Part shown: piece after piece, positions 21,399 to 40,107 of the stretch
How positions within the stretch are numbered: the first letter of the stretch is position 1
Layout: every line of letters starts with the position of its first letter
Assembly: GCA_902825775.1 (NCBI GenBank)
Contig: CADECF010000001.1
Span: 372,001-436,000 of the forward strand
Reading direction: 5' to 3'
From: an uncultured Lysobacteraceae bacterium
Lineage (GTDB): Bacteria > Pseudomonadota > Gammaproteobacteria > Xanthomonadales > Xanthomonadaceae
DNA length: 64,000 nt
The notes under the pieces: generated by a model
What the model was told of the DNA's origin: nothing
The model's database searches: none
What the model saw: only the letters and a program-made list of their open reading frames with translations
Translations under genes and position numbers: made by a program

Positions 21399-24300
21399 AT
21401 GAAAGTTAACGACACGACCCATCGCCTGCGTTCGCGCGGCTTGCGCCGAACGCCGGTTGCGCTGGCGGTGGCCTTGGCCTTCCAGTGCGGCGCGCTCTTC
21501 GCGCAGTCTCAGGAAACGGCGCCGTCACAGGATACGGTCAACCTCGACCGCATCGAAGTGCTCGGCACCAACATCCGCAAGGCCGAGATGGAAGGGCAGG
21601 CGCCGGTGCTCAACATCAGCCGCGAGCAAATCGAAAACAGCGGCCTGATCTCGATCGGCGATTTCCTGCAGCAGCTCACCAGCAGCGGCAAGGCGCTGAA
21701 CACGCAGTTCAACACCAGCGGCAACGCCGGTACGCCGCCCGACGGCGGCGGCATCGGTGCGGGCTCCACCCAGATCGACCTCCGCCACCTGGGCGCGCAG
21801 CGCGTGCTCGTGCTCGTCGACGGCAAGCGCTGGGTATACGAATCCTCCGCCTCAGGCGTGGGCGGCGCGGCCGACCTCAACACGATTCCGCTGGCGATCG
21901 TGGAACGCATCGAAGTATTGGGCGACGGCGCTTCTGCGGTGTACGGTTCGGATGCGATCGCGGGCGTGGTCAACATCGTCACGCGGCGCGATTTCAAGGG
22001 CGCCCAGTTCACCGGTTCGTACGGCCAGTTCGAAGACGGCGATGGCGAAACCTCGCGCGCCGAAATGACGGTCGGCACCGGCAACGACCGCTTCAACGCG
22101 ATCTTCTCCGCGAGTTTCCAGGAGCAGAAAGCGGTGTCCTCCGGCGATCGCGACATCTCGGACGATTTCCCGGGCGGCATCACCCGCGGCAGCCCGGTCA
22201 CCCCGCAGGGCCGAGCTGTGTTCCTCTCGCCGCCCGTACCGGGCAACCTGTGCCCGCCGCGCGATCTCAACGGCGACGGCATTCCGGACGCCTTCTTCTG
22301 CGACGTGACCACGCCGCCCAACGCACCGCTGGCCGGCAACGGCAGCCCCGCGTTCCCCACGGACTACATTCCTTATACCGACGATCAGAGCTTCAATGCG
22401 CAGCCATACAATCTGATCCTGACGCCTAACAAGCGCAAGAGCTTGTTTGCGGCCACCGATTTCACGATCAACGAAGGCCTCAAGTTCTACGCCAAGGCGC
22501 TCTACAACCGGCGCGAATCGATCAACCAGGCTGCGCCTAATACGATCGTGATCGGGCAGGAAGCGCCCGGCAACGGCCTCGCCGACCGCATCGGCGTATC
22601 GATACTCAATCCATACAACCCGTTCGGCCGCGACCTGATCCCGATCGCTCAGGGCGGCACCATGATCGCCATCGCGCGCCGTCCGGTGGAAGGCGGGCCG
22701 CGCATCTTCGAACAGACCGTAGATACTTACTACTTCAACACCGGACTCGAGGGCGAGTTCGAGGCCGGTTCGCATGCGTTCTACTGGGATCTGAACTACG
22801 TCAACTCGCAGAACCGCGCAGAACAGGTCTTCCGCAACACCTACAACATGCGCCGCGTGCAGTTGGCGTTGGGCAACCCTGCGACGTGCGCCGCAACGCC
22901 CGGCTGCGTGCCGCTGAACATCTTCGGCGGCATGGGGCCCGATGGGAAAGGCACGATCACGCCGCAGATGCTGGCCTGGATCAAGACCACCGTTCACGAC
23001 AGCAGCGAGCAGAATCTGCAGATCGCTTCGGCCAACGTCAGCGGCGATCTGTTTGACCTGCCGGACGGTCCTCTGTCCTTCGCCGCGGGCTTCGAGCATC
23101 GGCGCTACGACGGCTCGTTCACGCCGGATGCGGCGCGCGTGGCCGGCGAAATCCCGGACCAGGCCGCCACGGCCGCCACTGAGGGCGATTACGACGTCAG
23201 CGAGTTCTACGGCGAGTTCAACGCGCCGTTGCTGCGCGACAGGCGTTTCGCCAAGGATCTCGACCTGAGCGTGGCGGCCCGCTATTCGGATTACAGCACC
23301 TTCGGCGACGTGACCACCACCAAGATCGGCCTGAAGTGGCGCCCCCACGATTCGCTGTTGTTGCGCAGCACCTACTCGGAAGGTTTCCGCGCGCCGTTCA
23401 TCGGCGAGCTTTACGGCCTGTCGCAGTTCGGCGCGAGCATCACCGATCCTTGCTCCGGTTATGCGACATCCGGCAACGCGCAGCTGATCGCCAACTGCAC
23501 CGCGCTGGGCATTCCGACCACTTACAAGCAGCTGGGCTTCCAGATATTCACCACCACCGGCGGCAACGACAAGCTGCAGCCGGAGACTTCCGAGAGCCTG
23601 ACCTTCGGCGCGGTCTACAGCCCCGATTGGATCAAGGGCAGCGCGTTCGCTGATAGCCTGGACATCGAAGCCACCTACTATCGCCACCATGTGAAATCGG
23701 CGATCCAGGCGCCCGATGCGCAGGACGTGCTCAACGCCTGCGTGGCAACAGCGAATGCGGCCTCTTCGTCGTGCGCCGGTATCGTACGCAACGCCACCGG
23801 CACCATCGCCTCGTTCGACAACCGTCTGGCCAACATCGGCGACATCGAGACCGACGGCGTCGACCTCAATATCGAGTGGGCCTTGGAGACCGACATCGGC
23901 CGCTTCGGCGCGAACTGGCAGAACACCTACGTGGACAGCTACGTCGCCACGGATAGTTTCGGCAATCGGTTCAGCCGCACGGTGGGCGTCGAGGAAAACG
24001 ACAGCGCGATCCCGCGCGTCCAGTCCAAGCTGACCGTGGATTGGAAACGCGGCAACTTCGGCCTGGGCTGGACCGCGCGCTACACCAGCTCGCTCACCGA
24101 ACGCTGCTCGGACGCGTTCGACAGCAATCCGACGCTGTCGCTCACCGCGATGGGCTTGTGCTCGGAACCGAACTTCGACAATCCGTCGCTGTCGCGCGAC
24201 AAGCTGGGCGCCACGACCTACCACGATCTGTTCGCGAGCTGGGATTCGCCGTTCGGCGTGCAGGGCCTGCGTTTCGGCTTGAACCTCAACAACGTCTTCG

Positions 24301-24410
24301 ATAAGGACCCGCGCGTTTGCTACAGCTGCGCGCTCAACGGTTACGACCCCAGCACGTACGACGTGCCGGGCCGTTTCTGGAGCCTGCAGGTGTCTTACCG
24401 CTTCGAGTAA
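21399..24410 (+). CDS. TonB-dependent outer-membrane receptor
   Basis: A 1003-residue protein. The signal peptide ends near 'GALFAQS'; a TonB-box-like 'DTVNLDRIEVLG' follows at about residue 45, then the plug ('IDLRHLGAQRVLVLVDGKR', 'IERIEVLGDGASAVYGSDA') and a long barrel ending 'SLQVSYRFE'. Such receptors import siderophores, vitamins, peptides or glycans with energy from TonB-ExbBD. The penultimate Phe is a near-normal barrel end. The neighbour amidohydrolase suggests a peptide or amide substrate, but that is only inference. 'caggggaaaagag' upstream serves as ribosome-binding site. Confidence 0.93.
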   Translation: MKVNDTTHRLRSRGLRRTPVALAVALAFQCGALFAQSQETAPSQDTVNLDRIEVLGTNIRKAEMEGQAPVLNISREQIENSGLISIGDFLQQLTSSGKALNTQFNTSGNAGTPPDGGGIGAGSTQIDLRHLGAQRVLVLVDGKRWVYESSASGVGGAADLNTIPLAIVERIEVLGDGASAVYGSDAIAGVVNIVTRRDFKGAQFTGSYGQFEDGDGETSRAEMTVGTGNDRFNAIFSASFQEQKAVSSGDRDISDDFPGGITRGSPVTPQGRAVFLSPPVPGNLCPPRDLNGDGIPDAFFCDVTTPPNAPLAGNGSPAFPTDYIPYTDDQSFNAQPYNLILTPNKRKSLFAATDFTINEGLKFYAKALYNRRESINQAAPNTIVIGQEAPGNGLADRIGVSILNPYNPFGRDLIPIAQGGTMIAIARRPVEGGPRIFEQTVDTYYFNTGLEGEFEAGSHAFYWDLNYVNSQNRAEQVFRNTYNMRRVQLALGNPATCAATPGCVPLNIFGGMGPDGKGTITPQMLAWIKTTVHDSSEQNLQIASANVSGDLFDLPDGPLSFAAGFEHRRYDGSFTPDAARVAGEIPDQAATAATEGDYDVSEFYGEFNAPLLRDRRFAKDLDLSVAARYSDYSTFGDVTTTKIGLKWRPHDSLLLRSTYSEGFRAPFIGELYGLSQFGASITDPCSGYATSGNAQLIANCTALGIPTTYKQLGFQIFTTTGGNDKLQPETSESLTFGAVYSPDWIKGSAFADSLDIEATYYRHHVKSAIQAPDAQDVLNACVATANAASSSCAGIVRNATGTIASFDNRLANIGDIETDGVDLNIEWALETDIGRFGANWQNTYVDSYVATDSFGNRFSRTVGVEENDSAIPRVQSKLTVDWKRGNFGLGWTARYTSSLTERCSDAFDSNPTLSLTAMGLCSEPNFDNPSLSRDKLGATTYHDLFASWDSPFGVQGLRFGLNLNNVFDKDPRVCYSCALNGYDPSTYDVPGRFWSLQVSYRFE

Positions 24411-24430
24411 CCGCCGGATCGGCGTTGCAG

Positions 24431-24455
24431 CGCGGGCCGGATCTTCCGGCCCGCG
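24431..24455 (+). terminator. Hairpin after the TonB receptor gene
   Basis: A 10-bp perfect stem 'cgcgggccgg'/'ccggcccgcg' with loop 'atctt'. No T-run follows, so it may be only a partial terminator before the MAPEG gene. Confidence 0.5.
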
Positions 24456-24492
24456 ACTGCAGCGGCCGTGGCAGCTGATAGCAGGCATTTCG

Positions 24493-24879
24493 ATGTCCGT
24501 TCAAATCACTTCCATTTACGCGGGCGTGCTGGGCCTCTGGCTGGTCGCGCTCTCCGTCAATGTCGCCGGGCATCGCGCGAAGCTGGGCATCGGTCTGGGT
24601 GCAGGCGGCCACGAGCGGATGCGCCGCACGATCCGCATGCACGGCAATGCATCCGAGACGATACCGATCGCGTTGCTGCTGATGGCGTTTTACGAAATCG
24701 ATGGCGGCCGCGGCTGGATCCTGCATGCCGCCGGCGCCGCCCTCGTCACCGCCCGGATCGCTCATGCCTGCGGCTTGTGGAAATCCGAAGGCCCGCATCC
24801 GTTGCGGGTGGCCGGTGCTCAACTGACATGGCTGACGACGTTGGCGCTGGCATGCCTCGATATCGTCGGCGCGCTTTGA
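24493..24879 (+). CDS. MAPEG-family membrane protein
   Basis: A 128-residue protein with four hydrophobic helices. The family signature is 'RMRRTIRMHGNASETIPIAL' (about 39-58), with the Arg and Asn-Glu positions typical of MAPEG members such as E. coli YecN. Human relatives conjugate glutathione; bacterial members are little studied. It follows the TonB receptor by 82 bp on the same strand and converges with the FadB-like gene 19 bp away. Confidence 0.87.
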   Translation: MSVQITSIYAGVLGLWLVALSVNVAGHRAKLGIGLGAGGHERMRRTIRMHGNASETIPIALLLMAFYEIDGGRGWILHAAGAALVTARIAHACGLWKSEGPHPLRVAGAQLTWLTTLALACLDIVGAL

Positions 24880-24898
24880 TGTTTTCCTATCAGCTCGG

Positions 24899-26953
24899 CT
24901 AGACGCGCAAGGCTTCCGAATCCCAGCCCGGCCGCGGCGCGAAACGATCGCCGTACTTGCCCTGCAGCGCCTGCAGCTTGGCCAGCAGCGCATCGGCGCC
25001 CGTCTCGCGGATGTACTGGATCGGGCCGCCGCGGAACGGCGCGAAACCGGTGCCGAAGATCACGCCGGCATCGAGCAGATCGCGGTCTTCCACCACGCCA
25101 TCGTGCAGCGCGGCGACGGCTTCGTTGAGCAGCGGCAATATCAGTCGATCTTCGAGATCGTCCGGCGCTTTGTAATCCTTCGGTATTTCAGGCTTTTTGG
25201 CGCGCCCGTTTTCCCAGGCGTACAAACCCTGGCCGTCTTTCTTGCCGCGTTTGCCTTGTTCCGGCGGCGTGGCGAGCGCTGCGGGAATCGTCAGGCCCAG
25301 GAAGGGCGCGAGTTCCTGGCCGACGCCGGAAGCGACGTCCAGACCGACCGTGTCGATCAGTTCGATCGGCCCCATCGGCATGCCGAACTTCACGGCCGCT
25401 TTGTCGATCGCCGCCCCGGGGACGCCTTCCGAATACACGGTCGCCGCTTCCAGCATGTACGGGAACAGCACGCGGTTCACCAGGAAACCCGGCGTGCCCG
25501 CGACCGGCACCGGCAATTTATCGATCGCCTTGCAGAACGCGGCCAGGCGCTTGCCGGTTTCCGGCGCGACCTGGTCGTGATGGATGATTTCCACCAGCGG
25601 CATCATCGCCACCGGATTGAAGTAGTGCAGGCCGGCGAATTGCGCCGGGCGCTGGATGTGCTCGCGCAATTCGTCCAAAGGGATCGATGAGGTATTGGTC
25701 GTCAGCAGCGCATCGGCTTTCATCCGCGGTTCCAGCGTCGCGTACAGATCGCGCTTGGCCTGGGCCTGTTCGATGATGGCTTCGATCACCAGATCCGCAG
25801 CCGGCACGCCGTCGCCGTTCAGATCGGACTTCAATCGCGCGGCGACTTCGGGTCGCTTGGCATCGTCCTTCACTTTCTTGGCGAACAATTCCTGCGCGCG
25901 CGTCATCGCGCCATCGATGAAACGTTGTTCGCGGTCCTGCAGCGTCACCTCGAAGCCTTTGTAGGCCGACCATGCGGCGATGTCGCCGCCCATCACGCCT
26001 GCACCGACCACATGCACGTTGCGGATGCCCGAGTCTTTGCCGCCCAAGCCCTTCAAACGTTCCTGCAGGAAGAACACGCGGGTCAGATTGCGCGCGGTCG
26101 GCGTGCCGGCCAGCTTGACCACGGACTTGCGTTCGGCCGCGAGCCGCGCCTGGATGCCGCCGCTGCTGCGCCGCCAGGTTTCGATCAAGGAATACGGCGC
26201 GGGGTAGTGTTCCTTGCGTGCCTTGCGCGCGACCTGTTTGACCAGCATCGGCGCCAGGATCTGCCGCGCCGGCCAGGTATTGGTGATCCAACCGAGGAAG
26301 CGCTGCTTGAACGGACGTTGCGTGCCGAGCAACGCGAGTTCGGCGGCGGCATCGACCAGCATCGCCGGATCGACGACCTTGTCGACCAGACCGAGCGCCT
26401 TCGCCGCCGACGCCGACAACGTGCGCCCGGTCAGCATCATGTCCATCGCCGCCGGCGCGCCGACCAGCCGCGGCAGGCGCACGCTGCCGCCCCAGCCCGG
26501 ATAGATGCCCAACTTCACTTCCGGCAGCCCGATCCGCGTGGACGGATCGTTGCTGGCCGCGCGATAACGGCAGGCCAGCGAGATTTCGGTGCCGCCGCCC
26601 ATGCAGAAGCCGTGGATCGCCGCGACCGTGGGGCAGGGCAGTTCGGCCAAGCGCTGGAACGCCTGCTGGCCGCGGCGGATCGAGTCGCCGATCGTGCCCT
26701 TCTCGTCGAATTGCTGGAACTCGCGGATATCGGCCCCGGCGATGAAGCCTTTTTCCTTGGCCGAACGGATCACCAGGCCTTTGGGCGGGTCCAGCGCGAT
26801 CCGTTCCAGGAAGGCGTCGAGCTCGATCAGCACGTCCTGTGCGAAGGTGTTGACGCTCTCGCCGGCGCGGTCGAACGACAGCACCACCACGCCGTCGGGG
26901 CGGGCCTCGGCTTGCCAGTGGCTGAAGCGCAGTCCGTCCAGGCCTTCAATCAT
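24899..26953 (-). CDS. FadB/FadJ-type enoyl-CoA hydratase/3-hydroxyacyl-CoA dehydrogenase
   Basis: A 684-residue bifunctional beta-oxidation enzyme. The N-terminal crotonase domain has the oxyanion region 'FIAGADIREF' and the two catalytic acids Glu123 ('GGGTEISLA') and Glu145 ('GLPEVKLGIYPGWGG'). The dehydrogenase half begins with 'VHVVGAGVMGGDIAAW' (about 313-328), followed by 'LHYFNPVAMMPLVEI' with the catalytic His. It is a little shorter than E. coli FadB/FadJ (about 715-730). No thiolase partner gene lies next to it, so FadB versus FadJ cannot be decided. Confidence 0.9.
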   Translation of the reverse strand: MIEGLDGLRFSHWQAEARPDGVVVLSFDRAGESVNTFAQDVLIELDAFLERIALDPPKGLVIRSAKEKGFIAGADIREFQQFDEKGTIGDSIRRGQQAFQRLAELPCPTVAAIHGFCMGGGTEISLACRYRAASNDPSTRIGLPEVKLGIYPGWGGSVRLPRLVGAPAAMDMMLTGRTLSASAAKALGLVDKVVDPAMLVDAAAELALLGTQRPFKQRFLGWITNTWPARQILAPMLVKQVARKARKEHYPAPYSLIETWRRSSGGIQARLAAERKSVVKLAGTPTARNLTRVFFLQERLKGLGGKDSGIRNVHVVGAGVMGGDIAAWSAYKGFEVTLQDREQRFIDGAMTRAQELFAKKVKDDAKRPEVAARLKSDLNGDGVPAADLVIEAIIEQAQAKRDLYATLEPRMKADALLTTNTSSIPLDELREHIQRPAQFAGLHYFNPVAMMPLVEIIHHDQVAPETGKRLAAFCKAIDKLPVPVAGTPGFLVNRVLFPYMLEAATVYSEGVPGAAIDKAAVKFGMPMGPIELIDTVGLDVASGVGQELAPFLGLTIPAALATPPEQGKRGKKDGQGLYAWENGRAKKPEIPKDYKAPDDLEDRLILPLLNEAVAALHDGVVEDRDLLDAGVIFGTGFAPFRGGPIQYIRETGADALLAKLQALQGKYGDRFAPRPGWDSEALRV

Positions 26954-27031
26954 GTGGAATCTGCCATTCAGTCGGGTATGGAACCGTTATCATCCAGAGG
27001 ATGTTCCGATGGCGTCAACATTGACGGGAAT

Positions 27032-27146
27032 GGGGATTCGGGATTTGGGATTCGGAAAAGCGCGCTAAAGCGCCGTTTCGGCCCTCGCGGAGCCCGTCCC
27101 GGTGCGCTCTTGATGTGCCCAAGCCCCAGTCCCAAATCCCTAATCA
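27032..27146. repeat. GGGATTYGGGATT-type inverted repeat
   Basis: 'gggattcgggatttgggatt' at about 27035-27054 faces 'agtcccaaatccctaatc' at about 27128-27145. It fills much of the gap between fadB and rpoE and ends just before the candidate sigma-E promoter. No gene is seen in 26954-27224. Confidence 0.6.
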
Positions 27147-27156
27147 CCGGCCACAC

Positions 27157-27184
27157 GGAACTTTCCCCCATGCCAAAGGTCATA
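27157..27184 (+). promoter_or_regulatory. Candidate sigma-E/AlgU-type promoter upstream of rpoE
   Basis: GGAACTT (27157-27163), a 16-base spacer and TCATA (27180-27184). The -35 is a perfect match to the sigma-E class (GGAACTT); the -10 is a partial match to TCTGA/TCCAA. It lies about 40 bp before the rpoE start and suggests autoregulation. Confidence 0.55.
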
Positions 27185-27224
27185 CCGCCCAGCCACCGAG
27201 CCGGGCGAAAGGAGCGCCGGCCCG

Positions 27225-27851
27225 ATGGCCGATAAGGATTCATCGCAGGAATCGCAGGAGTTGTTGGACCACGAGCTGGTCAGGCGCGTGCAGCGCGGCG
27301 ACAGCGCGGCTTTCGATTTGTTGGTGCGCAAGTACCAGCACCGGATCGCCGCTTTGATCGGGCGCTACATCTCCGACTGGAGCGAGTGTCAGGACGTGGC
27401 GCAGGAAACCTTCCTGCGTGCGTACCGGGCGATCGCGAACTTCCGTGGCGATGCCCAGTTCTATACCTGGTTGCACCGTATCGCAGTGAACACCGCCAAG
27501 AACCATCTCGTTTCGCACAACCGGCGCCCGCCGACCGACGATATCGACGCGGCGGACGCCGAACAGTTCGAATCCGGCATCCGCCTGCGCGACACCGATA
27601 CGCCCGAGCGCGAACTGATGCGCCAGGAAATTGAACGAACGGTGATGCGCGTGGTCGATGGATTACCGGAAGAGTTGCGGACCGCCATCACCCTGCGCGA
27701 GGTGGACGGCCTGAGTTACGAAGAGATCGCGCAGAAGATGGATTGTCCGATCGGTACCGTGCGTTCGCGCATCTTCCGGGCGCGCGAGGCCATCGATACC
27801 GAATTGCAACCTCTGCTCGACAACGAACCCCGTGAGCGTGCCCGCACATGA
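27225..27851 (+). CDS. rpoE: ECF sigma factor RpoE (AlgU-like)
   Basis: A 208-residue sigma factor of the sigma-E type. Region 2: 'DLLVRKYQHRIAALIGRYI' and 'DVAQETFLRAYRAIANFRGD'. Region 4: 'LPEELRTAITLREVDGLSY' and 'CPIGTVRSRIFRAREAI'. It directs RNA polymerase to envelope-stress genes and should be held inactive by the anti-sigma factor encoded next. The stop overlaps the next start as ATGA. The context rpoE-rseA-mucD is the standard stress module. Confidence 0.96.
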   Translation: MADKDSSQESQELLDHELVRRVQRGDSAAFDLLVRKYQHRIAALIGRYISDWSECQDVAQETFLRAYRAIANFRGDAQFYTWLHRIAVNTAKNHLVSHNRRPPTDDIDAADAEQFESGIRLRDTDTPERELMRQEIERTVMRVVDGLPEELRTAITLREVDGLSYEEIAQKMDCPIGTVRSRIFRAREAIDTELQPLLDNEPRERART

Positions 27852-28753
27852 CCCAAGACCATCGCAACGGCGACGATAAGATCGAAATCCATTACCGGCT
27901 CCAGCTTTCGGCGCTGATGGACGGCGCATTGCCGCCCGATGAGGCCCGGTTCCTGTTGCGCCGCATGCAGCACGACACCGAGCTGGGCGGCTGCTGGGAG
28001 CGCTGGCAGATGGCCGGCGAAACCCTGCGCGGCCGCACGGCGGCGCCGTTGCCTGCCGATTTTTCGCAGCGCGTAGCCGCGCTGATCGCCGCAGAACCCG
28101 CGCCGGCGCTCAAGCCTGCCGTGCAGTCGCAACGATGGATGCGTTGGGGCGGCGGCGCGTTGGCCGCCTCGGTCGCTTTGCTCGCTTTGTTCATGACCCG
28201 GCAGCAGTCGCCGGCCGATGCGGTACCGGACCGGCCCACCCAGATCGTCGCCGCGTCTTCTACGCCGACGCCTGCGCCCGAACCGATTGCACCGCCTGCG
28301 CCGTCCACCGCCGATCCGAATGCCGCCGGTGCGCTCGCCGCCACCGCGGTCGCGGTGGCCGAAGTGCCGCGCCGCGCCGCCAGCCGGCGTGCAGCTTCCA
28401 CGCGTTCGCAGAGCCAGCGCGCGGCGCTGCGCGCATCGCGCAACAACGAAGATCTGCCGATAGCGGTCGCGTCCGCCAGCACTTCGGCGGACGCATCGGG
28501 CGTGCATTCGATCGCCGTCAGCAACCCGGCGGCGCCGACCGCCGTCGCGTCCAACGATCCCTTCGCTTCGCAGCCGATCGCGCCTAGCCGGCCGTGGCCG
28601 AGTGCGACTTTGCCGCAGTTCTCGTCCGGCACGCTCAGCGTCGATTACGGGACCGCGGGCGCTTACTACCCGTTCCAGCCGCGATTGCCGAATGCCGCGC
28701 CCGCGAGCGAAGCGCCGGCCGATGCGGGCGTGCAGGAAACGCCGCAGCGCTGA
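27848..28753 (+). CDS. rseA: RseA/MucA-like anti-sigma-E factor
   Basis: A 301-residue single-pass inner-membrane protein. The N-terminus has the RseA pattern 'QLSALMDGALPPDEARFLLR' and 'CWERWQMAGETLRG', which binds the sigma factor in the cytoplasm. A helix spans about 101-117, followed by a long Ala/Pro/Arg-rich periplasmic part of low complexity. It should release RpoE when cut by site-1 and site-2 proteases under envelope stress. No RseB-like gene is present between it and mucD, which differs from E. coli and P. aeruginosa. Confidence 0.88.
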   Translation: MTQDHRNGDDKIEIHYRLQLSALMDGALPPDEARFLLRRMQHDTELGGCWERWQMAGETLRGRTAAPLPADFSQRVAALIAAEPAPALKPAVQSQRWMRWGGGALAASVALLALFMTRQQSPADAVPDRPTQIVAASSTPTPAPEPIAPPAPSTADPNAAGALAATAVAVAEVPRRAASRRAASTRSQSQRAALRASRNNEDLPIAVASASTSADASGVHSIAVSNPAAPTAVASNDPFASQPIAPSRPWPSATLPQFSSGTLSVDYGTAGAYYPFQPRLPNAAPASEAPADAGVQETPQR

Positions 28754-28757
28754 CCCG

Positions 28758-28785
28758 GGAACGTTTCGCTTCGTTGCCGTTCCAA
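28758..28785 (+). promoter_or_regulatory. Candidate sigma-E/AlgU-type promoter of mucD
   Basis: GGAACGT (28758-28764), exactly 16 bases, then TCCAA (28781-28785), starting five bases after the rseA stop. The -10 matches the AlgU consensus TCCAA and the spacing equals that of the candidate upstream of rpoE. It would let mucD be induced separately from rpoE-rseA. Confidence 0.6.
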
Positions 28786-28825
28786 GTCGTCCTATCCATC
28801 AATCCTTGTCGAGGATGAGTCCCCG

Positions 28826-30367
28826 ATGATCCGTTCGTTACGTCCTTTCGCCGCCATGTCCCTGGGCGCCGCCATTGCTACCGCCGTGGTCGTTGCCCTG
28901 CCAGACGCCACCGCGCAATCCAACGCAGCCTCGCCCGCAGCCGTAACGCAGACGCCGGCGCCGCAACTGGTCGGCGGGTTGCCCGATTTCACCCAGTTGG
29001 TCGAGCAGGTCGGTCCCGCGGTGGTCAACATCGAAGCCGATGTGAAGCCGCGCCGCGCTTCGATGCAGCAGATGCCCGACGACGAAGAGATTCCCGAGAT
29101 CTTCCGCCGCTTCTTCGGCCCCGGTGGCATGCCGGGCATGCCCAGCCCGGACCCGCGCGGCCGCGGCGGCGTGTCGATGGGCACCGGCTTCATCATTTCC
29201 GCCGACGGTTACGTGCTTACCAACCATCACGTGGTCGAAGGTTCGGACGAGGTCAAGGTGAAGTTGTCCGATCGTCGCGAATTCACCGCCAAAGTGGTGG
29301 GCAGCGACGAGAAATCCGATGTGGCCTTGCTGAAGATCGCCGGCGGCAACCTGCCGTTCCTGCGCACCGGCAATTCCAACGGGCTCAAGCCCGGCCAGTG
29401 GGTGGTGGCGATCGGTTCTCCGTTCGGCCTCGACCATTCGGTCACTGCCGGCGTGGTCAGCGCGGTCGGCCGTTCCAATCCTTATGCGGACCAGCAGTAC
29501 GTACCCTTCATCCAGACCGACGTCGCGATCAATCGCGGCAACTCGGGCGGCCCTTTGCTCAACACGCGCGGCGAAGTGGTCGGCATCAATTCGCAGATTT
29601 TCAGCAATTCCGGCGGCTACATGGGCGTGAGCTTCGCGATCCCGATCGATATCGCGATGAACGCCGTGCAGCAGCTCAAGACCAGCGGCCGGGTCAGCCG
29701 CGGCATGCTCGGCGTCAATCTGCAGGAAATCGATAGCGATATAGCGAAGGGAATGGGTTTACCCGACTCGCGCGGCGCCCTCGTTGCTGGCGTGGAGCCA
29801 GGCACGGCGGCTGAAAAGGCGGGGATTCTTCCCGGCGACGTGATTATTGGCTTCAACGGTCAGGCCATTAACGATCGTACCCAGTTGCCACCTCTCGTCG
29901 GAGCCTTGCCGCCAGGTTCGCGTGCAGAAGTGACACTGCTGCGTGACGGCAAAAAGCGCGAAGTGCCGGTCGTACTTTCGCAGTTGAATGAGGAAGGCAT
30001 GTCAGCCAGTGGGCTCCCGTCAGCCCCCGGCAAACCTTCTCAAGGATCTGCAGCGTCGGCCAATCCGCTCGGTATCGTGGGTCAGGATCTTGATAGCGAC
30101 GACAGGAAGCAATTAGGACTACAAGCTGGCGAGGGCGTAGGGGTAGCGCGGGTCGAAGGCCTGGCGGCGCGTGGTGCAGGCTTGCGTCCGGGCGATGTCA
30201 TCCTGTCGGTCGGCCGTACGAAAGTATCCAACTCGGCTGCGCTCAATCAGCAATTGCGCAGCATTGCTGCTGGTCAGACAGTGATGCTCCTGGTTAGGCG
30301 GGGACAAGTTACCCAGTTTCTGGCAATCAAGGCTCGTGAGAATGCGCAGAGCGAAGAAGATTCATAG
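28826..30367 (+). CDS. mucD: Periplasmic serine protease/chaperone MucD (DegP/HtrA family), composite 3' end
   Basis: A 513-residue HtrA protease with a signal peptide ending near residue 30 ('ATA'). The catalytic triad is His135 ('LTNHHVVEG'), Asp165 ('SDVALLKI') and Ser240 ('NRGNSGGPLLN'), followed by two PDZ domains. It degrades misfolded periplasmic proteins and dampens sigma-E. From about residue 302 (nt 29730) codon use shifts: ATA, TTA, CTA, GGA and AGG appear, unlike the first 300 codons. A decayed copy of a more GC-rich mucD 3' end lies downstream at 30884-31034. The protein looks intact, but its second half was probably imported by recombination. Confidence 0.95.
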   Translation: MIRSLRPFAAMSLGAAIATAVVVALPDATAQSNAASPAAVTQTPAPQLVGGLPDFTQLVEQVGPAVVNIEADVKPRRASMQQMPDDEEIPEIFRRFFGPGGMPGMPSPDPRGRGGVSMGTGFIISADGYVLTNHHVVEGSDEVKVKLSDRREFTAKVVGSDEKSDVALLKIAGGNLPFLRTGNSNGLKPGQWVVAIGSPFGLDHSVTAGVVSAVGRSNPYADQQYVPFIQTDVAINRGNSGGPLLNTRGEVVGINSQIFSNSGGYMGVSFAIPIDIAMNAVQQLKTSGRVSRGMLGVNLQEIDSDIAKGMGLPDSRGALVAGVEPGTAAEKAGILPGDVIIGFNGQAINDRTQLPPLVGALPPGSRAEVTLLRDGKKREVPVVLSQLNEEGMSASGLPSAPGKPSQGSAASANPLGIVGQDLDSDDRKQLGLQAGEGVGVARVEGLAARGAGLRPGDVILSVGRTKVSNSAALNQQLRSIAAGQTVMLLVRRGQVTQFLAIKARENAQSEEDS

Positions 30368-30406
30368 TTCGACACTCTTCGTTTCGGTTCGTGATGTTAT
30401 TGCGAT

Positions 30407-30443
30407 AAAAAAGAACGGCCGCCCATTCGGCGGCCGTTCTCTT
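30407..30443. terminator. Bidirectional rho-independent terminator between mucD and the inverted small gene
   Basis: An 11-bp perfect stem 'gaacggccgcc'/'ggcggccgttc' (30413-30423 and 30429-30439) with a 5-base loop. The minus-strand side is followed by TTTTTT; the plus-strand side by 'tctt'. It therefore ends the minus-strand small gene best and probably mucD as well. Confidence 0.9.
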
Positions 30444-30730
30444 AAACGCAGTAGCAGTTTAAAATCCGATAAATCGTGTTTCCGAACACGACATGGCATT
30501 GCGGACAATCAGCCGCGCTGAAAGATGCGCTTTCATCCACTGGCACTAATCCAAGTTCTTCAGGATCGAATGGCAGGCCATCGTCTGCATGTGGAACTGC
30601 ATTTTTATTTTTTAAGCCCGCTGCAGGTTTTTGTGGCCCCAACATCGCCAGAACTAGCACTGCTAGGGTAAACAGCAGTCACTAGGCAAATTCCAAAGAA
30701 TGCTGCAAAGCAGTTTTTAGCCAACTTCAT
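30442..30730 (-). pseudogene. Small inverted membrane/exported protein gene with one frameshift
   Basis: An ATG at 30730 has a perfect AAAGGAG six bases upstream and begins 'MKLAKNCFAAFFGICLVTAV', a signal-peptide or membrane-helix start. Its own frame stops at 30605, giving 41 residues. Moving to the next frame (+1 shift) between 30680 and 30660 continues the hydrophobic run ('LLFTLAVLVLAMLG') into a 70-residue tail ending at 30442 with 'CPQCHVVFGN' and 'LNCYCV' (CxxC and CxC pairs). The stop abuts the terminator. So a complete gene unit is present, either frameshifted, recoded or misread by sequencing. I do not recognise the family. GC content is lower than in its neighbours. Confidence 0.6.
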
Positions 30731-30883
30731 GGATTGCTCCTTTCTTGTGACTCTCCCGAGAATGAAGCTAGCACTGCATAGTCAGGCAGCTGTGTGATTG
30801 AGGGCACAATTCATCTGGACCGATTCGCTGGACTTTGGGAATCCGTAGCGTCGCTTTTGCTGCCATCTTCGGCGCCGCCGTCG

Positions 30884-31034
30884 AATCTGCTGGGTCGTCG
30901 ACCTGGACGCGAGGAGCCCCAATCCTTTGGTCCACCTGCGGGCCGGCCAGACTCAGTTGCGGCGCGGTCAGTCGACCCAGTTCGTGGCGGTGACGCCGCG
31001 GGCGGGTGGCGACGACGAAGGCGACGAGGGTTAA
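30884..31034 (+). pseudogene. Decayed remnant of a second mucD 3' end
   Basis: In the frame ending at the TAA at 31032-31034 the translation contains 'VVDLDAR' (30894-30914) and then 'LRAGQTQLRRGQSTQFVAV' (30936-30992) and 'TPRAGGDDEGDEG'. These match the intact MucD C-terminus, where 'GQDLDSDDR' is followed much later by 'LRSIAAGQTVMLLVRRGQVT' and 'QFLAI'. 'NLLG' at 30884 (intact: 'NPLG') is in another frame. About 60 residues of the second PDZ domain are missing. The remnant is GC-rich like the rest of the chromosome. The stretch 30731-30883 shows no gene. Confidence 0.75.
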
Positions 31035-31040
31035 AGCTGT

Positions 31041-31199
31041 TTCCTCCCCCCTCGCGGGGGAGGATGCCCGAAGGGCAGGAGAGGGGGCGCGAGCGTAGCG
31101 AAGCGTGCTTTTCTCTTCCTATCAGATGGCGCGAAGAGCCGAACCCTCTCCCTGGCCTTCGGCCTGTCCCTCTCCCACAAGGGGAGAGGGAAAAGCCGG
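31041..31199. repeat. C-rich/G-rich inverted repeat, copy 1 (upstream of lepA)
   Basis: It begins 'cctcccccctcgcgggggag', runs through 'gaggatgcccgaagggcagg' and 'gcgcgagcgtagcgaagcgt', and closes with 'ccctctcccacaaggggaga'. A copy of nearly identical layout is at 40714-40899. Both lie shortly before a gene for an RNA-related protein. Confidence 0.8.
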
Positions 31200-31204
31200 G
31201 GTCG

Positions 31205-31213
31205 TGCGATAAT
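31205..31213 (+). promoter_or_regulatory. Candidate extended -10 promoter element for lepA
   Basis: TGCGATAAT has the TG-n-(TATAAT-like) extended -10 form, 48 bp before the lepA ATG. No good -35 box is seen 17 bp upstream, which is compatible with an extended -10 promoter. Confidence 0.4.
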
Positions 31214-31260
31214 GGCGCGTTGTCTCAGAAGGGCCGCGATGTCGGCCGTACCCGCGCCCC

Positions 31261-33066
31261 ATGTCAGATTCGATGCGGAATATCCGCAACTTTTCCATCA
31301 TCGCCCACGTCGACCACGGTAAATCGACGCTGGCAGACCGCATCATCCAACTCTGCGGCGGGCTCCAGGCCCGCGAGATGGAGGCGCAGGTGCTCGACTC
31401 GAATCCGATCGAGCGCGAGCGCGGCATCACCATCAAGGCCCAGTCCGTGTCCCTGCCGTACACGGCCAAGGACGGGCAGGTGTACCAGCTGAACTTCATC
31501 GATACCCCCGGCCATGTCGACTTCAGCTACGAAGTCAGCCGCTCGCTGGCCGCCTGCGAAGGCGCGCTGCTGGTGGTCGACGCCGCCCAGGGCGTGGAAG
31601 CGCAGTCGGTCGCCAACTGCTACACCGCGGTCGAGCAGGGCCTGGAAGTGGTGCCGGTGCTCAACAAGATCGACCTGCCCACCGCCGACGTCGAGCGGGT
31701 CAAGAAGGAAATCGAAGCGGTGATCGGCATCGACGCCGAGGACGCGGTGGCGATCAGCGCCAAGACCGGCCTCAACGTCGGCGACGTGCTCGAGGCGATC
31801 GTGCAGCGCATCCCGCCGCCCAAGCCGCGCGATACCGACAAGCTGCAGGCGCTGATCATCGATTCCTGGTTCGACAATTACCTGGGCGTGGTCTCGCTGG
31901 TGCGGGTGATGCAGGGCGAGATCGTGCCCGGCACCAAGATCCTGGTGATGTCGACCGGGCGTACGCACCTGGTCGACAAGGTCGGCGTGTTCACCCCCAA
32001 GCGCAAAGACCTGCCCAAGCTGGGCGCCGGCGAAGTGGGCTGGATCCACGCCAGCATCAAGGACGTGCACGGCGCGCCGGTCGGCGACACGCTGACGCTG
32101 GCTTCGGATCCGGCGTCCAAACCGCTGCCTGGTTTCCAAGAGATGCAGCCGCGCGTGTTCGCCGGTCTGTTCCCCGTGGATGCCGAAGACTACCCGGCGC
32201 TGCGCGAGGCGCTGGAAAAGCTGCGCCTCAACGACGCGGCGCTGCGTTTCGAACCGGAAAGCTCGGAGGCGATGGGTTTCGGCTTCCGTTGCGGTTTCCT
32301 GGGCATGCTGCACATGGAAATCGTGCAGGAGCGGTTGGAGCGCGAATACGACCTCAACCTGATCACCACCGCGCCGACGGTGATTTATGAAGTGCTCAAG
32401 ACCGACGGCTCGGTGATGCCGCTGGACAACCCGGCCAAGCTGCCGCAGATGAACCTGGTCGAAGAAGTCCGCGAACCGATCATCCGCGCCAACATCCTCA
32501 CGCCGCCCGATTACGTCGGCAACGTGATCACCCTATGCGAAGAGAAGCGCGGCAGCCAGATCAGCATCCAGTACCTGGGCAGCCAGGTGCAGATCAGCTA
32601 CGAGCTGCCGATGGCCGAAGTGGTGCTGGATTTCTTCGACCGGCTCAAATCCGTATCGCGCGGATACGCGTCGCTCGATTACCACTTCCTGCGATTCCAG
32701 CCCGGGCCCTTCGTCCGCGTGGATACGTTGATCAACGGCGACAAGGTCGACGCATTGAGCATCATCACCCACCGCCAGCACGCCGACCGGCGCGGCCGCG
32801 AGCTGACCGAGCGGATGCGCGAGCTGATCCCGCGGCAGATGTTCGATGTGGCGATCCAGGCCGCGATCGGTTCTCAGATCATCGCCCGGACCACGGTCAA
32901 GGCGCTGCGCAAGAACGTGCTGGCCAAGTGCTACGGCGGCGACGCCACCCGCAAGAAGAAGCTTCTGGAGAAACAGAAGGAAGGCAAGAAGCGGATGAAA
33001 CAGGTGGGGCGCGTGGAAATCCCGCAGGAAGCGTTCCTGGCCGTGCTGCAGGTGGACAACAAGTGA
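31261..33066 (+). CDS. lepA: Elongation factor 4 (LepA)
   Basis: A 601-residue translational GTPase of normal length. G1 '[10 protein letters not shown]', switch I '[11 protein letters not shown]', G3 'DTPGHVDF' and G4 'LNKIDLP' are all present, followed by the EF4-specific C-terminal domain ('[20 protein letters not shown]'). LepA acts on ribosomes, in back-translocation in vitro and in initiation or subunit assembly in vivo. It stands first in the lepA-lepB-DUF4845-rnc-era-recO group. Confidence 0.98.
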
Positions 33067-33135
33067 ATCGGGTTTTCGAGGCCGAAATGCCTCGCAGAAT
33101 TCGTACGGAATGACGGTTAGCCCTTGATTTTCCTT

Positions 33136-33290
33136 CTCCCTTCGGGAGAAGGTGCCCGCAGGGCGGATGAGGGTCCGGCGAAGGGGCGAATATCCCCGTT
33201 CGCCTCGTTCTTCCGAGTGGGACGGTTTGAGCGCCATCGCTTCGCCGTACCCTCTCCCCAACCCCTCTCCCGGTGGGAGAGGGGCTTTAG
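33136..33290. repeat. Degenerate C/G-rich inverted repeats between lepA and lepB
   Basis: 'ccttctcccttcgggagaag' and 'ccctctcccggtgggagagg' are short hairpins flanking about 110 bases of related sequence. They lie between the lepA stop and the lepB ribosome-binding site. No gene is seen in 33067-33304. Confidence 0.65.
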
Positions 33291-33304
33291 CATTAGGAGT
33301 TCGC

Positions 33305-34108
33305 ATGCGTTGGTTTGAAATCGGATTGGTGGTGCTGACTTTCGCCACCGGCATCATCTGGTTGCTGGACAAGCTGTTCTTCGCCAAGGCGCGCGCGCGC
33401 GAAGGCGGTGCGCTGCTGGAGACCAAAGAGCCGGTACTGGTCGATTATTCGCGGGCTTTCTTTCCGGTGCTGCTGATCGTGCTGTTGCTGCGCAGCTTCA
33501 TCGCCGAGCCGTTCCGCATCCCGTCCAGTTCGATGATGCCCAGTCTGCTGATCGGCGACTTCATCCTGGTCAACAAGTTCGCCTACGGCCTGCGCCTGCC
33601 GATCACCAACAAGAAGTTCTTCGCCACCGGCGAGCCCAAGCGCGGCGACGTGGTCGTGTTCAAGCCGCCGCACCACCCCGAGCAGGACTGGATCAAGCGC
33701 GTGATCGGCCTGCCGGGCGATACCGTGGCCTATCGCGACAACACCGTCTACGTGAACGGCAAGCCGTTCGCCTACCGTCCGGTCGGCAGCTATATCGGCA
33801 AGGGCCAGGGCAGCGAGATGACCGGCGCCACTCTGCTCACCGAGGAACTGCCCGGGCGCCCGCACCCGGTGCTGGAACGTGAGGACTTGCCGTTTTTCGC
33901 CGCCCAGGGCGAGGGACAATGGACGGTGCCGGCCGGGCAGTATTTCGTCATGGGCGACAATCGTGATAATAGCGAGGACAGCCGGTTCTGGGACGTGCAC
34001 TTCTTGCCTGAGGAGAATCTCCGCGGCAAAGCGTTCCTGATCTGGTTCAACGTGGACCGCAGCGCGGGCGGGGTGGATTTCTCGCGGATCGGTTCCGGTA
34101 TTCCATAG
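33305..34108 (+). CDS. lepB: Signal peptidase I
   Basis: A 267-residue inner-membrane protease that removes Sec and Tat signal peptides. Two N-terminal helices (about 4-22 and 51-66) anchor it; the catalytic Ser76 is in 'RIPSSSMMPSL' and Lys131 in 'DWIKRVIGLPGD'. 'FVMGDNRDNSEDSRFW' is the C-terminal box. ATG 33305 has 'aggag' five bases upstream; the longer frame upstream runs through repeats and was rejected. Next comes the DUF4845 gene after 24 bp. Confidence 0.97.
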   Translation: MRWFEIGLVVLTFATGIIWLLDKLFFAKARAREGGALLETKEPVLVDYSRAFFPVLLIVLLLRSFIAEPFRIPSSSMMPSLLIGDFILVNKFAYGLRLPITNKKFFATGEPKRGDVVVFKPPHHPEQDWIKRVIGLPGDTVAYRDNTVYVNGKPFAYRPVGSYIGKGQGSEMTGATLLTEELPGRPHPVLEREDLPFFAAQGEGQWTVPAGQYFVMGDNRDNSEDSRFWDVHFLPEENLRGKAFLIWFNVDRSAGGVDFSRIGSGIP

Positions 34109-34132
34109 CGTCATTCAGTAAGAGGGGAGAGC

Positions 34133-34516
34133 ATGAAACGCACGCAAAGCGGCATCACCTTGATCGGGTTCCTGGTCGTGCTGGCCGTGGCGGGCTTCTT
34201 CGCCTACGTCGGCATGAAGCTGTTCCCGATGTATCAGGAGTTCTACAGCGTCAAATCGGCGCTGAAGGGGCTGTCCAACGAGCCCGGCATCGCCACGAAG
34301 GATCCGGCGAAGATACAGGACCTGTTCTTCCGTCGGCTGTACATCAACTACTCCGACAACGTGAAGCCCGAGAACGTCAAGCTCTCGCGCAGCGACCGCG
34401 GTTGGAAGATGGAAGTCAATTACGAAGTGCGCAAGCCGATGATCTACAACATCGATGTGGTCGGTAAGTTCGATGCGGTGCAAGAGTTGACGCGTACCGG
34501 TGACGCCGATAGCTGA
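34133..34516 (+). CDS. DUF4845 pilin-like membrane protein
   Basis: A 127-residue protein starting '[20 protein letters not shown]', which resembles a type IV pilin leader (G-I-T-L-I-G), then one helix and a soluble domain with '[16 protein letters not shown]'. DUF4845 genes are regularly found between lepB and rnc in gammaproteobacteria; function unknown. The usual pilin Glu at +5 is replaced (GITLIG), so it may not be a true pilin. Its end overlaps the rnc start by 17 nt. Confidence 0.85.
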
Positions 34517-35195
34517 TACCGAGCAGGGTTCCGGCGACGGCGTGTTCGGAAACCATGCATTCAGGGATCCGGGCCTGCTCAAGCAGGCCCTGACCCACCG
34601 CAGCGCAGGCGCCCCGCATAACGAGCGCCTGGAATTCCTCGGCGATGCGCTGGTCGGCTTGATCGTGGCCGACGCGCTGTACGCGCGCTGGCCCAAGGCG
34701 GACGAAGGCGCGCTGACCCGTGCGCGTTCCGAATTGGTCCGCGAATCCTCCCTGGCCACGATCGCGCGGCGCATGGATCTGGGCGGCGCGCTCATCCTAG
34801 GCCCGGGCGAAATGAAGTCCGGCGGCCACCGCCGCGATTCGATCCTGTCCGATGCGCTGGAAGCCCTGGTCGGGGCTATCTACCTCGACGCCGGTTATGA
34901 GGCCTGCCGCGAAGCGGTGCTGCCTTGGTTCACCCACGCCATGGACGAACTGCCGGCCGGCAAGGTGGAAAAAGACGCCAAAACCCGCCTGCAGGAATGG
35001 TTGCAGGCGCGCCAGCGCTCCTTGCCTGTCTACGAACTGGTGGCCGAGAGCGGCGACGACCATGCCAAGGTGTTCCATGTGCGTTGTCGGTTGAGCGATG
35101 CGGAGCTTGCGGCGGAGGGCGAGGGCAGCTCGCGTCGCGCCGCGGAGCAGGCCGCGGCCGAGGCCATCCTGCAAGCCTTGCTCGCGGCTTTGTAG
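34500..35195 (+). CDS. rnc: Ribonuclease III
   Basis: A 231-residue dsRNA endonuclease for rRNA processing and mRNA control. The catalytic signature '[13 protein letters not shown]' and the second acidic site '[17 protein letters not shown]' are present, and a dsRNA-binding domain follows from about residue 157. The GTG start lies inside the end of the DUF4845 gene. Just past the stop is a nested palindromic repeat that separates it from era; such a hairpin could itself be an RNase III substrate. Confidence 0.97.
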
Positions 35196-35340
35196 AGCGG
35201 GGCTTGCTCCGCTGCTTTGCTCTTGTTCTTCGCAAGAGCGGCTTCAGCCGCGAGCTCTTGATCTTGGTCTTACTGGGTCGAACAGCTCGCGGCTGAAGCC
35301 GTTCTTACGAAAAGCAGCGGAGCAAGCCCCGCTCTACAAA
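35191..35340. repeat. Nested palindromes: GGAG-type REP pair inside a GTAG-type pair
   Basis: Outer arms 'tgtagagcggggcttgctcc' and 'ggagcaagccccgctctaca' are complements. Between them lies the second family, 'gagcggcttcagccgcgagc' and its partner 'agctcgcggctgaagccg'. The whole block forms one long hairpin in the rnc-era gap. No gene is seen in 35196-35398. Confidence 0.85.
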
Positions 35341-35398
35341 ACCGAGCGGCGACCTCGGAAATTTGCCCTGGCGCCCCCCGTGGCCGGACAATCCACGC

Positions 35399-36307
35399 AT
35401 GGACCCCACTTTCCACCGCGCCGGCAGCGTCGCCGTCATCGGCCGGCCCAACGTCGGCAAATCGACTCTGGTCAATGCCTTGGTCGGCGCCAAAGTCAGC
35501 ATCACCTCCAAACGGCCGCAAACCACGCGGCACCGGCTATTGGGCATCGCCACTTTTCCGCAGGGCCAGATCGCGCTGGTCGATACGCCGGGCCTGCATC
35601 GCGAGCAGGGCAAATCCACCGCATCGGCCATGCACCGCTGGATGAACCGCGCCGCGCGCGGCGCGCTCGAAGGCGTCGATGCCGCCGTGCTGGTGGTCGA
35701 AGCCGGGCGTTGGGACGACGAGGACACGCTCGCTTTCGACGCCCTCAAACAAGCCGGCGTGCCGGTGGTGCTGGCGGTGAACCAGGTCGACAAGCTGCGC
35801 GACAAGACCGCGCTGCTGCCCTATCTGGCCAAAGTGTCGGACGGGCGCGAATTCGCCAGCGTGCATCCGATCTCGGCGCTCAAGCGCAGCGGCCTGGAAA
35901 CCTTGGTCGAAACGCTGCTCAAACTGCTTCCCGAAGCGCCGCCGATGTATGGCGAGGATGAGATCACCGACAAAAGCCAGCGTTTCCTGGCCGGCGAAAT
36001 GGTGCGCGAGCAGCTGATGCGCCAGCTCGGCGCCGAATTGCCGTACGCGACCACGGTCGAGATCGAACGCTTCGTCGAAGATGGCGAGCTGCTGCGCATC
36101 GGCGCAGTGATCTGGGTCGAGCGCGACGGCCAGAAGGCGATCGTGATCGGCAAGGGCGGCAGCCGCCTGCGCGAAGTCGGCACGCTGGCGCGTTCGCACA
36201 TGGAGCAGTTGTTCGGGCGCAAAGTGTTTCTCGAGACTTGGGTACGGGTGCGCGAAGGTTGGTCGGATGACGAAGCCGCGTTGCGTACTTTGGGTTATCA
36301 CGATTGA
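35399..36307 (+). CDS. era: GTPase Era
   Basis: A 302-residue GTPase that helps mature 16S rRNA and the 30S subunit. G1 'GRPNVGKST', G3 'DTPG', G4 'NQVDK', and a C-terminal KH domain with '[13 protein letters not shown]'. ATG 35399 was chosen because '[19 protein letters not shown]' matches the usual short N-terminus; a frame open from 35363 adds 12 unlikely residues. The REP block upstream and another one downstream isolate it from rnc and recO. Confidence 0.96.
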
Positions 36308-36315
36308 CGGTGTTT

Positions 36316-36395
36316 GTGGGAGCGGCTTCAGCCGCGAGCTTTCCCCGCCGATGCCGAGTCGTGGCACAAGAGCTCGCGGCTGAAGCCGCTCCCAC
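36316..36395. repeat. GGAG-type REP pair between era and recO
   Basis: Arms 'gtgggagcggcttcagccgc' and its exact complement enclose about 40 bases with 'gagctttc' and 'aagagctc'. The right arm ends 9 bases before the recO ATG. Confidence 0.9.
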
Positions 36396-36404
36396 AAAAC
36401 AGCC

Positions 36405-37145: not shown

Positions 37146-37195
37146 TGCCCATCCGAGTCCGTTTTTTTGTAGGCGGCCTTTAGCGGCTGTGGCTT

Positions 37196-37290
37196 TCGTG
37201 GGAGCGGCTTCAGCCGCGAGCTCTTGATCCATCGCCGCGCCTCGAAAAGCTCGCGGTTGAAGCCGCTCCCACGAAAGCCGCTCACACGAA
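37196..37290. repeat. GGAG-type REP pair with an extra half-unit
   Basis: 'gtgggagcggcttcagccgc' faces 'gcggttgaagccgctcccac', followed by one further half-site 'gccgctcacacgaaa'. It lies between the convergent recO and REC-Hpt genes. Confidence 0.85.
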
Positions 37291-37320
37291 AAAGCCCATC
37301 CTGCATTCGGCCGCAGAAGC

Positions 37321-38028: not shown

Positions 38029-38043
38029 CGTTATGCTCTTCCC

Positions 38044-40062: not shown

Positions 40063-40107
40063 TTCGCGATTCCTCATGTTTCGATGTCATCCATCAGGAG
40101 AAAGCAC

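What the first reader, a model, noticed from the sequence alone, without database searches (positions are those of the whole stretch)
29727..31034. mucD is completed by an imported 3' end, with the displaced native 3' end left behind as a remnant
From about codon 302 mucD switches to codons (ATA, TTA, CTA, AGG, GGA) rare in the first 300 codons. After its stop come a bidirectional terminator and an inverted small gene. At 30884-31034 a GC-rich remnant of another mucD 3' end follows ('LRAGQTQLRRGQSTQFVAV' against the intact '..AGQTVMLLVRRGQVTQFLAI'), with a frameshift and about 60 codons of PDZ2 missing. The simplest reading is that a segment of roughly 1.1 kb entered at mucD, restored the gene with a foreign 3' end, and carried cargo. 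That is the logic of elements which insert in a gene and rebuild its end, but here without a visible integrase.
Basis: partly seen in the sequence, partly recalled or inferred. Interest (0 to 1): 0.85.

Follow-up and report, generated by a model that had tools for sequence, protein, structure and literature searches.

The report
Swapped protease tail with stowaway gene
The tail end of a bacterial quality-control protease gene appears to have been replaced by a foreign version that brought a small extra gene along and left a piece of the old tail behind, and similar swaps turn up at the same spot in several related genera.

Summary
mucD (28826-30367) is a chimera: up to about codon 294 it matches its closest held congener (G003) at 91% nucleotide identity, after that at 61% on codon alignment (73% on free nucleotide alignment). 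The displaced native 3' end survives, decayed, at 30862-31034: 73 of 82 bases match the end of G003's mucD, 47 of 76 the window's own new end. The foreign piece, about 29705-30861, holds a low-GC3 tail, a terminator-like stem and an inverted small gene split over two frames. No integrase or border repeat was found. Best mechanism: recombination anchored by homology in the protease domain, joined illegitimately at the other end.

Seven of 199 family loci compared carry a small signal-peptide-like gene between mucD and lepA; they hold ranks 1-7 of 199 in the GC3 drop from mucD head to tail. So low-GC tails and small secreted-protein genes go together. Only the window shows a native remnant (202 gaps).

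Donor, cargo function and any tail-cargo interaction are unknown. Protein-tree tests do not reject vertical descent of the window's tail; kinship of its cargo to the others is unproven.

The parts
28826..29704 (+). native mucD head: trypsin-like protease domain (codons 1 to about 293)
   Evidence: Pfam Trypsin_2 at 119-254; 91% nt to G003; change point codon 294, range 285-297
29705..30367 (+). imported mucD tail: two PDZ stretches, in frame, own stop; left border uncertain by about 30 nt
   Evidence: 61% nt (codon-aligned) to G003, GC3 0.58 for codons 302-513, 99 'G000 alone' sites against 16 in the head; PDZ_2, 2 stretches
30409..30443 (.). 12-bp stem with loop of 5; T-run on the minus strand: probably the terminator of the inverted gene
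30442..30660 (-). C-terminal frame of the inverted small gene (72-aa ORF, ends in a Cys-rich stretch)
   Evidence: no hit outside G000 in 395 family genomes, none in phages (16), Pfam and NCBIfam empty
30605..30730 (-). N-terminal frame of the same gene: signal-peptide-like start (judged by eye) with a Shine-Dalgarno-like sequence; the frames do not match, so the gene is probably broken
   Evidence: sequence; 41-aa ORF; no Pfam match
30862..31034 (+). decayed remnant of the displaced native mucD 3' end (linker piece 30862-30920; last part 30953-31034 with the native stop)
31035..31260 (+). native mucD-lepA intergenic DNA
   Evidence: alike to the DNA behind mucD in G003 and G001

Best explanation
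Linear DNA from an unknown relative paired with the recipient's mucD in the conserved end of the protease domain and was recombined in there by homology (inferred from the sharp in-frame switch). Its other end, beyond a terminator-like stem and an inverted small gene, was joined illegitimately to the recipient's own mucD in the linker before PDZ2. Roughly 110 native codons were lost, and the rest of the native 3' end became a remnant that has since decayed (shown: the remnant, its kinship, its deletions). This is homology-facilitated illegitimate recombination (HFIR). It is one case of a recurrent process in the family: the mucD tail and the mucD-lepA gap are replaced together, and low-GC tails come with small secreted-protein genes (association shown; the mechanism in the other genomes, exchange between two homologous anchors, is inferred).
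For: Switch and identities; remnant; over 22000-40500 the lowest well-aligned 250-nt bins against G003 are those of the tail, and most of the gap does not align. Recurrence: flanks alike but tails unlike in G314/G261 (fourfold-site identity head/tail/lepA 0.95/0.54/1.00), G116/G019 (0.93/0.43/0.94), G161/G115 (0.89/0.33/0.94), G229/G307 (0.85/0.37/0.83). The seven cargo carriers are ranks 1-7 of 199 in GC3 drop. AU rejects a shared tail for G314+G009, p 8e-8. HFIR is described in three naturally competent species and, at low efficiency, in E. coli conjugation (PMC3240628, title and start of abstract; PMC2884548, passages), and was proposed for displaced 3' regions of T6SS and Rhs loci (PMC5361080, passages).
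Against: No donor found (best non-self tail match 62% aa, G003, in 395 family genomes), so the right junction cannot be checked for microhomology. AU tests do not reject a shared tail for G000+G003 (0.26), G116+G019 (0.33), G161+G115 (0.51), G414+G390 (0.23) or for the four congeners. Constraint also drops near codon 293: two of five control pairs have their change point there (G246/G129 codon 301, dlnL 26.8; G139/G160 codon 292, dlnL 7.0), and two of the 12 tail-drop pairs do not exceed 26.8. No control gene was run. ComEC is weak evidence of competence: it rings in 10 of 14 control genomes, E. coli included. The order of events could be reversed (cassette first, native end returned later).
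Confidence: 0.7

Rival explanations
1. A site-specific integrative element uses mucD as its target, carries a copy of the 3' end that restores the gene, and has lost its integrase or is moved in trans.
For: Anatomy: restored gene, cargo, displaced 3' end.
Against: No repeat at the two borders; the carried tail is about 660 bp and strongly diverged; roughly 110 native codons missing; no significant match of the parts tried in plasmids, phages or viral contigs; no remnant found in the other 201 gaps screened; carrier tails are 29-53% identical to each other, unlike one element family.
Confidence: 0.06
2. Two steps: an ancestor first received a complete tail-plus-cargo cassette by exchange between two homologous anchors, as the other carriers appear to have; later a native-type fragment anchored at lepA came back with an illegitimate left end inside the cassette.
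For: The other carriers show no remnant, so a clean cassette is the usual state; fourfold identity to G003 is higher in lepA (0.97) than in the mucD head (0.76).
Against: Needs two events; identity to G003 right of the remnant is within the regional range.
Confidence: 0.17
3. No import: the 3' end was duplicated, the upstream copy evolves fast in place and the old copy decays.
For: PDZ tails diverge faster than the protease domain in ordinary pairs too; protein AU tests do not reject vertical descent.
Against: Fourfold sites fall with it (0.76 head, 0.35 tail, 0.97 lepA); 99 'G000 alone' sites in the tail against 23 for G003; GC3 shift; most of the gap has no counterpart in G003 and its DNA matched 2 of 60 relatives searched, itself and a 37-nt stretch in G053.
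Confidence: 0.07

Closest known systems
Homology-facilitated illegitimate recombination (HFIR)
   Same: One end joined by homology, the other illegitimately, as the passages of PMC2884548 and PMC5361080 describe
   Different: Here a natural, old event inside a housekeeping protease gene, with the cut native end still readable; the illegitimate joint itself could not be inspected
Displaced 3' regions and orphan immunity genes of T6SS effector and Rhs loci
   Same: Constant head, replaced 3' region, small gene beside it, old piece shifted downstream (PMC5361080, passages); low GC of such modules is recalled
   Different: The head is a periplasmic-type protease, the tail is PDZ domains and not a toxin, the small genes have signal-peptide-like starts and six of seven are inverted; no toxin or immunity role shown
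Blocks of highly diverged sequence ('homeologous' microdiversity)
   Same: Short diverged block between alike flanks (PMC2884548, abstract and passages)
   Different: Here seen across several genera at one locus, with cargo tied to low-GC tails

Membership tests
HFIR event | one border inside sequence homologous to the recipient | tested here: met
   in-frame switch at codon ~294 within mucD
HFIR event | other border without homology, at most microhomology | tested here: inconclusive
   30381-30870 is not alike to the mucD region of five relatives above shuffles, but the donor is unknown, so the joint cannot be compared
HFIR event | insertion coupled to deletion of recipient DNA | tested here: met
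   native codons from ~294 to ~400 absent, parts of the rest present
HFIR event | entry of linear DNA (competence or conjugation) | tested here: inconclusive
   ComEC family present, but also in 10 of 14 control genomes
site-specific integrative element | integrase gene | tested here: not met
   outside mucD the segment is 494 nt; its ORFs of 60 aa or more and the 232-aa frame from 30794 have no Pfam match
site-specific integrative element | identical core at both borders | tested here: not met
   one 12-nt pair at 92%, not at the borders, in 29600-31260
polymorphic toxin tail module (Rhs/CDI/T6SS type) | conserved head with exchanged tail plus adjacent small gene | tested here: met
polymorphic toxin tail module (Rhs/CDI/T6SS type) | tail is a toxin | tested here: not met
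   the window's tail matches PDZ domains
polymorphic toxin tail module (Rhs/CDI/T6SS type) | small gene gives immunity | not testable with these tools
   no model over its curated cut-off in Pfam or NCBIfam for the small proteins

The most novel reading that the evidence does not exclude
In this family the PDZ tail of MucD and a small secreted, usually Cys-rich protein encoded tail-to-tail behind it form an exchangeable two-part module. The tail is matched to its own partner (as PDZ receptor, handler or protector of a secreted peptide), and the pair moves between genomes by recombination anchored in the protease domain and lepA. The window is a locus where this exchange was caught half-finished.
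Probability: 0.3. Interest if true: 0.85.

Novelty: new variant of a known kind. Interest (0 to 1): 0.67.

Why it matters
Constant-head, exchanged-tail genes with a linked small gene are known from toxins. The same layout in a quality-control protease of the HtrA type, with the old tail left as a fossil, would suggest that PDZ specificity can be swapped wholesale and may be matched to a linked secreted peptide. It also gives a natural example of one-sided illegitimate integration, and a defined place (mucD-lepA) where cargo capture can be followed across many genomes.

Tried and rejected
Donor search: tail protein against 395 family genomes (best non-self 62%), 38 genomes of genus g17 (best 61%) and viral contigs; gap DNA against 60 relatives; segment DNA against plasmids. 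No donor. Cargo search: the 72-aa ORF against 395 genomes and phages; the G314 and G071 proteins against plasmids and the G071 protein against phages (one Bacteroides plasmid match at E 0.9); PDB sequences; viral contigs; 170 genomes of the order (nothing rang, and that answer itself warns that it lacks a positive control). Family models: no match over a curated cut-off; below it, G161's protein has a NCBIfam match to 'BRANT' over its first 32 residues (E 2e-4, 22 of 44 bits), and a few Pfam/NCBIfam matches with E of 0.026 or more. Rfam: nothing over gathering in 28000-34000.

Idea that other genomes keep remnants: tblastn (E 0.01) of the tails against 202 gaps found only the window; hits in G091, G315 and G125 are mucD genes whose frame is broken in those genomes. 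Idea that the window's small protein belongs to the G314/G220/G071 peptide family: a profile of the three does not detect it, nor G116's; a shuffle test of the C-termini, chosen after looking, gave 1 of 5000 for the window, 6 of 3000 for G414, 162 of 3000 for G116. Left as unproven. Protein trees as the decisive test: inconclusive; the G071+G204 test did not finish. A control gene run through the same comparison was planned and not done. Literature listings on natural transformation and on constant-head, variable-tail genes were seen as listings only and not used. One search had loci on the wrong strand for minus-strand matches and was redone.

Full report
1. What is there. mucD (28826-30367, 513 aa) is open throughout and has a trypsin-like domain and two PDZ stretches. 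It lies before lepA (31261). The window is part of genome G000 (3.76 Mb, 26 contigs), whose genus holds three other genomes here, G001-G003.

2. The switch. Against G003, the closest congener, aa identity is 0.94 for codons 48-300 and 0.60 for 303-508. On codon columns without gaps in seven genomes nucleotide identity is 0.908 in the head (233 codons) and 0.614 in the tail (201 codons), third positions 0.803 and 0.393; a free nucleotide alignment gives 0.910 and 0.735. The other congeners stay nearer each other in the tail (G003-G001 0.740, G003-G002 0.738, G001-G002 0.726). Sites where G000 stands alone against the three others number 16 in the head and 99 in the tail; for G003 17 and 23. The likelihood change point is codon 294 (range 285-297), about 29705. 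Over 22000-40500 the 250-nt bins outside the tail and gap lie at 0.72-0.98 identity to G003; the tail bins 29750 and 30000 are the lowest (0.58, 0.68), and most of 30300-30860 does not align.

3. The remnant. 30862-30920 aligns to the linker before PDZ2 of G003's mucD, with several small gaps (score 34; best of 100 shuffles 21, or 29.5 with a longer query). With the other four relatives tried this stretch alone is at about the level of shuffles. 30953-31034 matches the last part of G003's mucD in 73 of 82 positions, G001's in 66 of 82, G002's in 58 of 72, and the window's own new end in 47 of 76. The DNA behind the remnant's stop continues as the congeners' intergenic DNA. So 30862-31034 is the native end, broken by deletions, and about 29705-30861 is the newcomer; native codons from about 294 to about 400 are gone.

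4. The cargo. Behind the new tail lies a 12-bp perfect stem followed by a T-run on the minus strand. Then comes a minus-strand gene split over two frames: 30605-30730 begins with a signal-peptide-like stretch behind a Shine-Dalgarno-like sequence (by eye), and 30442-30660 ends in a Cys-rich stretch. GC is 0.46 for 30442-30731. The 72-aa frame has no match in Pfam, NCBIfam, phages, or in 395 family genomes other than G000 itself.

5. Not only here. I collected mucD-lepA regions of family genomes in three rounds: best matches, with 80 regions fetched (153 loci, 148 with lepA in reach); G071; and 60 further regions out of the 72 genomes with a lepA match among 80 searched, 66 of which had been picked because they gave no tail match. 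Of those 60, seven gave no mucD frame. The set is therefore not random. 202 gaps were screened for remnants. Three loci with broken mucD frames (G091, G315, G125) were dropped, as were the five without lepA, leaving 199 loci, one per genome. Seven carry a small gene with a signal-peptide-like start in the gap: G000, G116 (g17), G314 (g7), G220 and G071 (g64), G414 (g30), G161 (g16). Six are inverted and have a GC-rich stem behind mucD (scores 18-24); such stems are common in non-carriers too (95 of 192 score 16 or more). G161's gene is in direct orientation and has no Cys.

6. Cargo goes with odd tails. Head minus tail GC3 averages 0.269 in the seven and 0.014 (sd 0.039) in the other 192, and the seven hold ranks 1-7 of 199. 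Carriers were named from gap content before this was computed. By an objective rule (gap of 400 nt or more with GC under 0.60) there is an eighth, G371, at rank 14. Against the nearest non-carrier with head aa at least 0.94 and lepA fourfold identity at least 0.85, tail aa is under 0.62 in 4 of 6 carriers and 4 of 69 non-carriers (Fisher p 8e-4); with looser limits 5 of 7 and 6 of 103 (p 7e-5). The two carriers that miss the limit are G116, whose fourfold identity still falls from 0.93 to 0.43, and G220, where the fall is modest (0.67 to 0.51). The six non-carriers (G317, G229, G307, G411, G294, G209) suggest that tails are also exchanged without cargo; in G294 and G209 the tail's fourfold identity stays at 0.81 and 0.71. 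Fourfold identity saturates in these high-GC genomes, so cross-genus values are not used as proof.

7. Are the cargoes related? A profile from G314 and G220 finds, in 395 family genomes at E below 1e-3, only these two and G071, whose copy is again inverted between mucD and lepA. A five-sequence profile adds G414 at 7.5e-4 but recovers neither G116, one of its own seeds, nor G000. No match below 1e-3 lies outside the mucD-lepA gap. The window's frames are not found by a profile of the three clear members. One of 5000 shuffles of the window's last 21 residues reaches its score against their C-termini, a test chosen after looking; the same kind of test gives 6 of 3000 for G414 and 162 of 3000 for G116. 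I treat the window's cargo as a possible, decayed member.

8. Mechanism. In 12 of 12 tail-drop pairs that I chose by hand the left change point lies at codons 279-301; part of this is the fall in constraint at the end of the protease domain, since two of five control pairs also break there and two of the 12 are no stronger than the strongest control. On the right, an ungapped walk upstream from lepA's IRNFS motif stays alike for about 80 nt in four pairs (G000/G003, G116/G019, G317/G358, G294/G084), for 20-40 nt in most others, and not at all for G161; this suits exchange between conserved anchors but does not prove it. The window differs: its right border falls inside the native mucD. No repeat lies at the borders. 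HFIR describes this; it is reported in three competent species and in E. coli conjugation, and was proposed for displaced 3' regions of T6SS and Rhs loci (PMC2884548 and PMC5361080, passages; PMC3240628, title and start of abstract). Competence is not shown; a ComEC-family protein is present. Two events in reverse order are kept as a rival.

9. Results against. The tail tree puts G000 outside the other three congeners (99 for those three), but holding all four together is not rejected (p 0.67), nor is G000+G003 (0.26), G116+G019 (0.33), G161+G115 (0.51) or G414+G390 (0.23); only G314+G009 is (8e-8). Some carrier tails are nearest to their own genus (G116, G314, G220, and at 60% G000), so low-GC tails may be old alleles within genera and not imports from far away. 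The case for import in the window rests on nucleotide divergence, the remnant and the unalignable gap.

10. Novelty. In the held library I found nothing on recombination in mucD's PDZ region: 'mucD, PDZ, recombination' gave 3 papers, on other topics by title; 'lepA, mucD, Xanthomonas' gave none; 'HtrA, PDZ, horizontal gene transfer, variable C-terminal' (at least 3 terms) gave 26, of which I saw 10 in the listing. Most papers of subscription journals are not held. I file this as a new variant of a known kind.

Noticed in passing
L258 13546-15682 (G383), genus g18; G318 (L257) has a gap of similar size: A 2.1-kb, low-GC (0.41-0.50) insert between mucD and lepA with a 179-aa ORF without Pfam match that ends in a Cys-containing stretch and a 441-aa ORF with a glycosyltransferase-like match below cut-off (PF13439, E 3e-5); GC of mucD falls only in its last ~200 bp.
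   Followed up: partly
L259 (G288) and L228 (G371), genus g18: In G288 no mucD match within 15.7 kb upstream of lepA; in G371 a 1191-bp gap of 48% GC with short pieces resembling the ORFs of the G383 insert by eye.
   Followed up: partly
L247 (G161), gap behind mucD: Small signal-peptide-like gene without Cys in direct orientation behind a mucD tail with very low GC3 (0.88 head, 0.53 tail); GC of the gap 0.45.
   Followed up: partly
window 31040-31200 and 33130-33290: Similar GC-rich palindromic stretches ('cctctccc...') on both sides of lepA, also behind mucD in G003 and G001; probably a dispersed repeat.
   Followed up: no
window 31270-31348, minus strand: Rfam AsrC match (42 bits, below the gathering score of 111) over the 5' end of lepA.
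   Followed up: no
genus g17: G229/G307, G317/G358, G411/G307: mucD tails differ strongly between species whose heads and lepA are alike, without cargo in the gap.
   Followed up: partly
G091 (L253), G315 (L246), G125 (L255): mucD frame broken in these assemblies, with the rest of the gene in the apparent gap; genuine or sequencing error not known.
   Followed up: no
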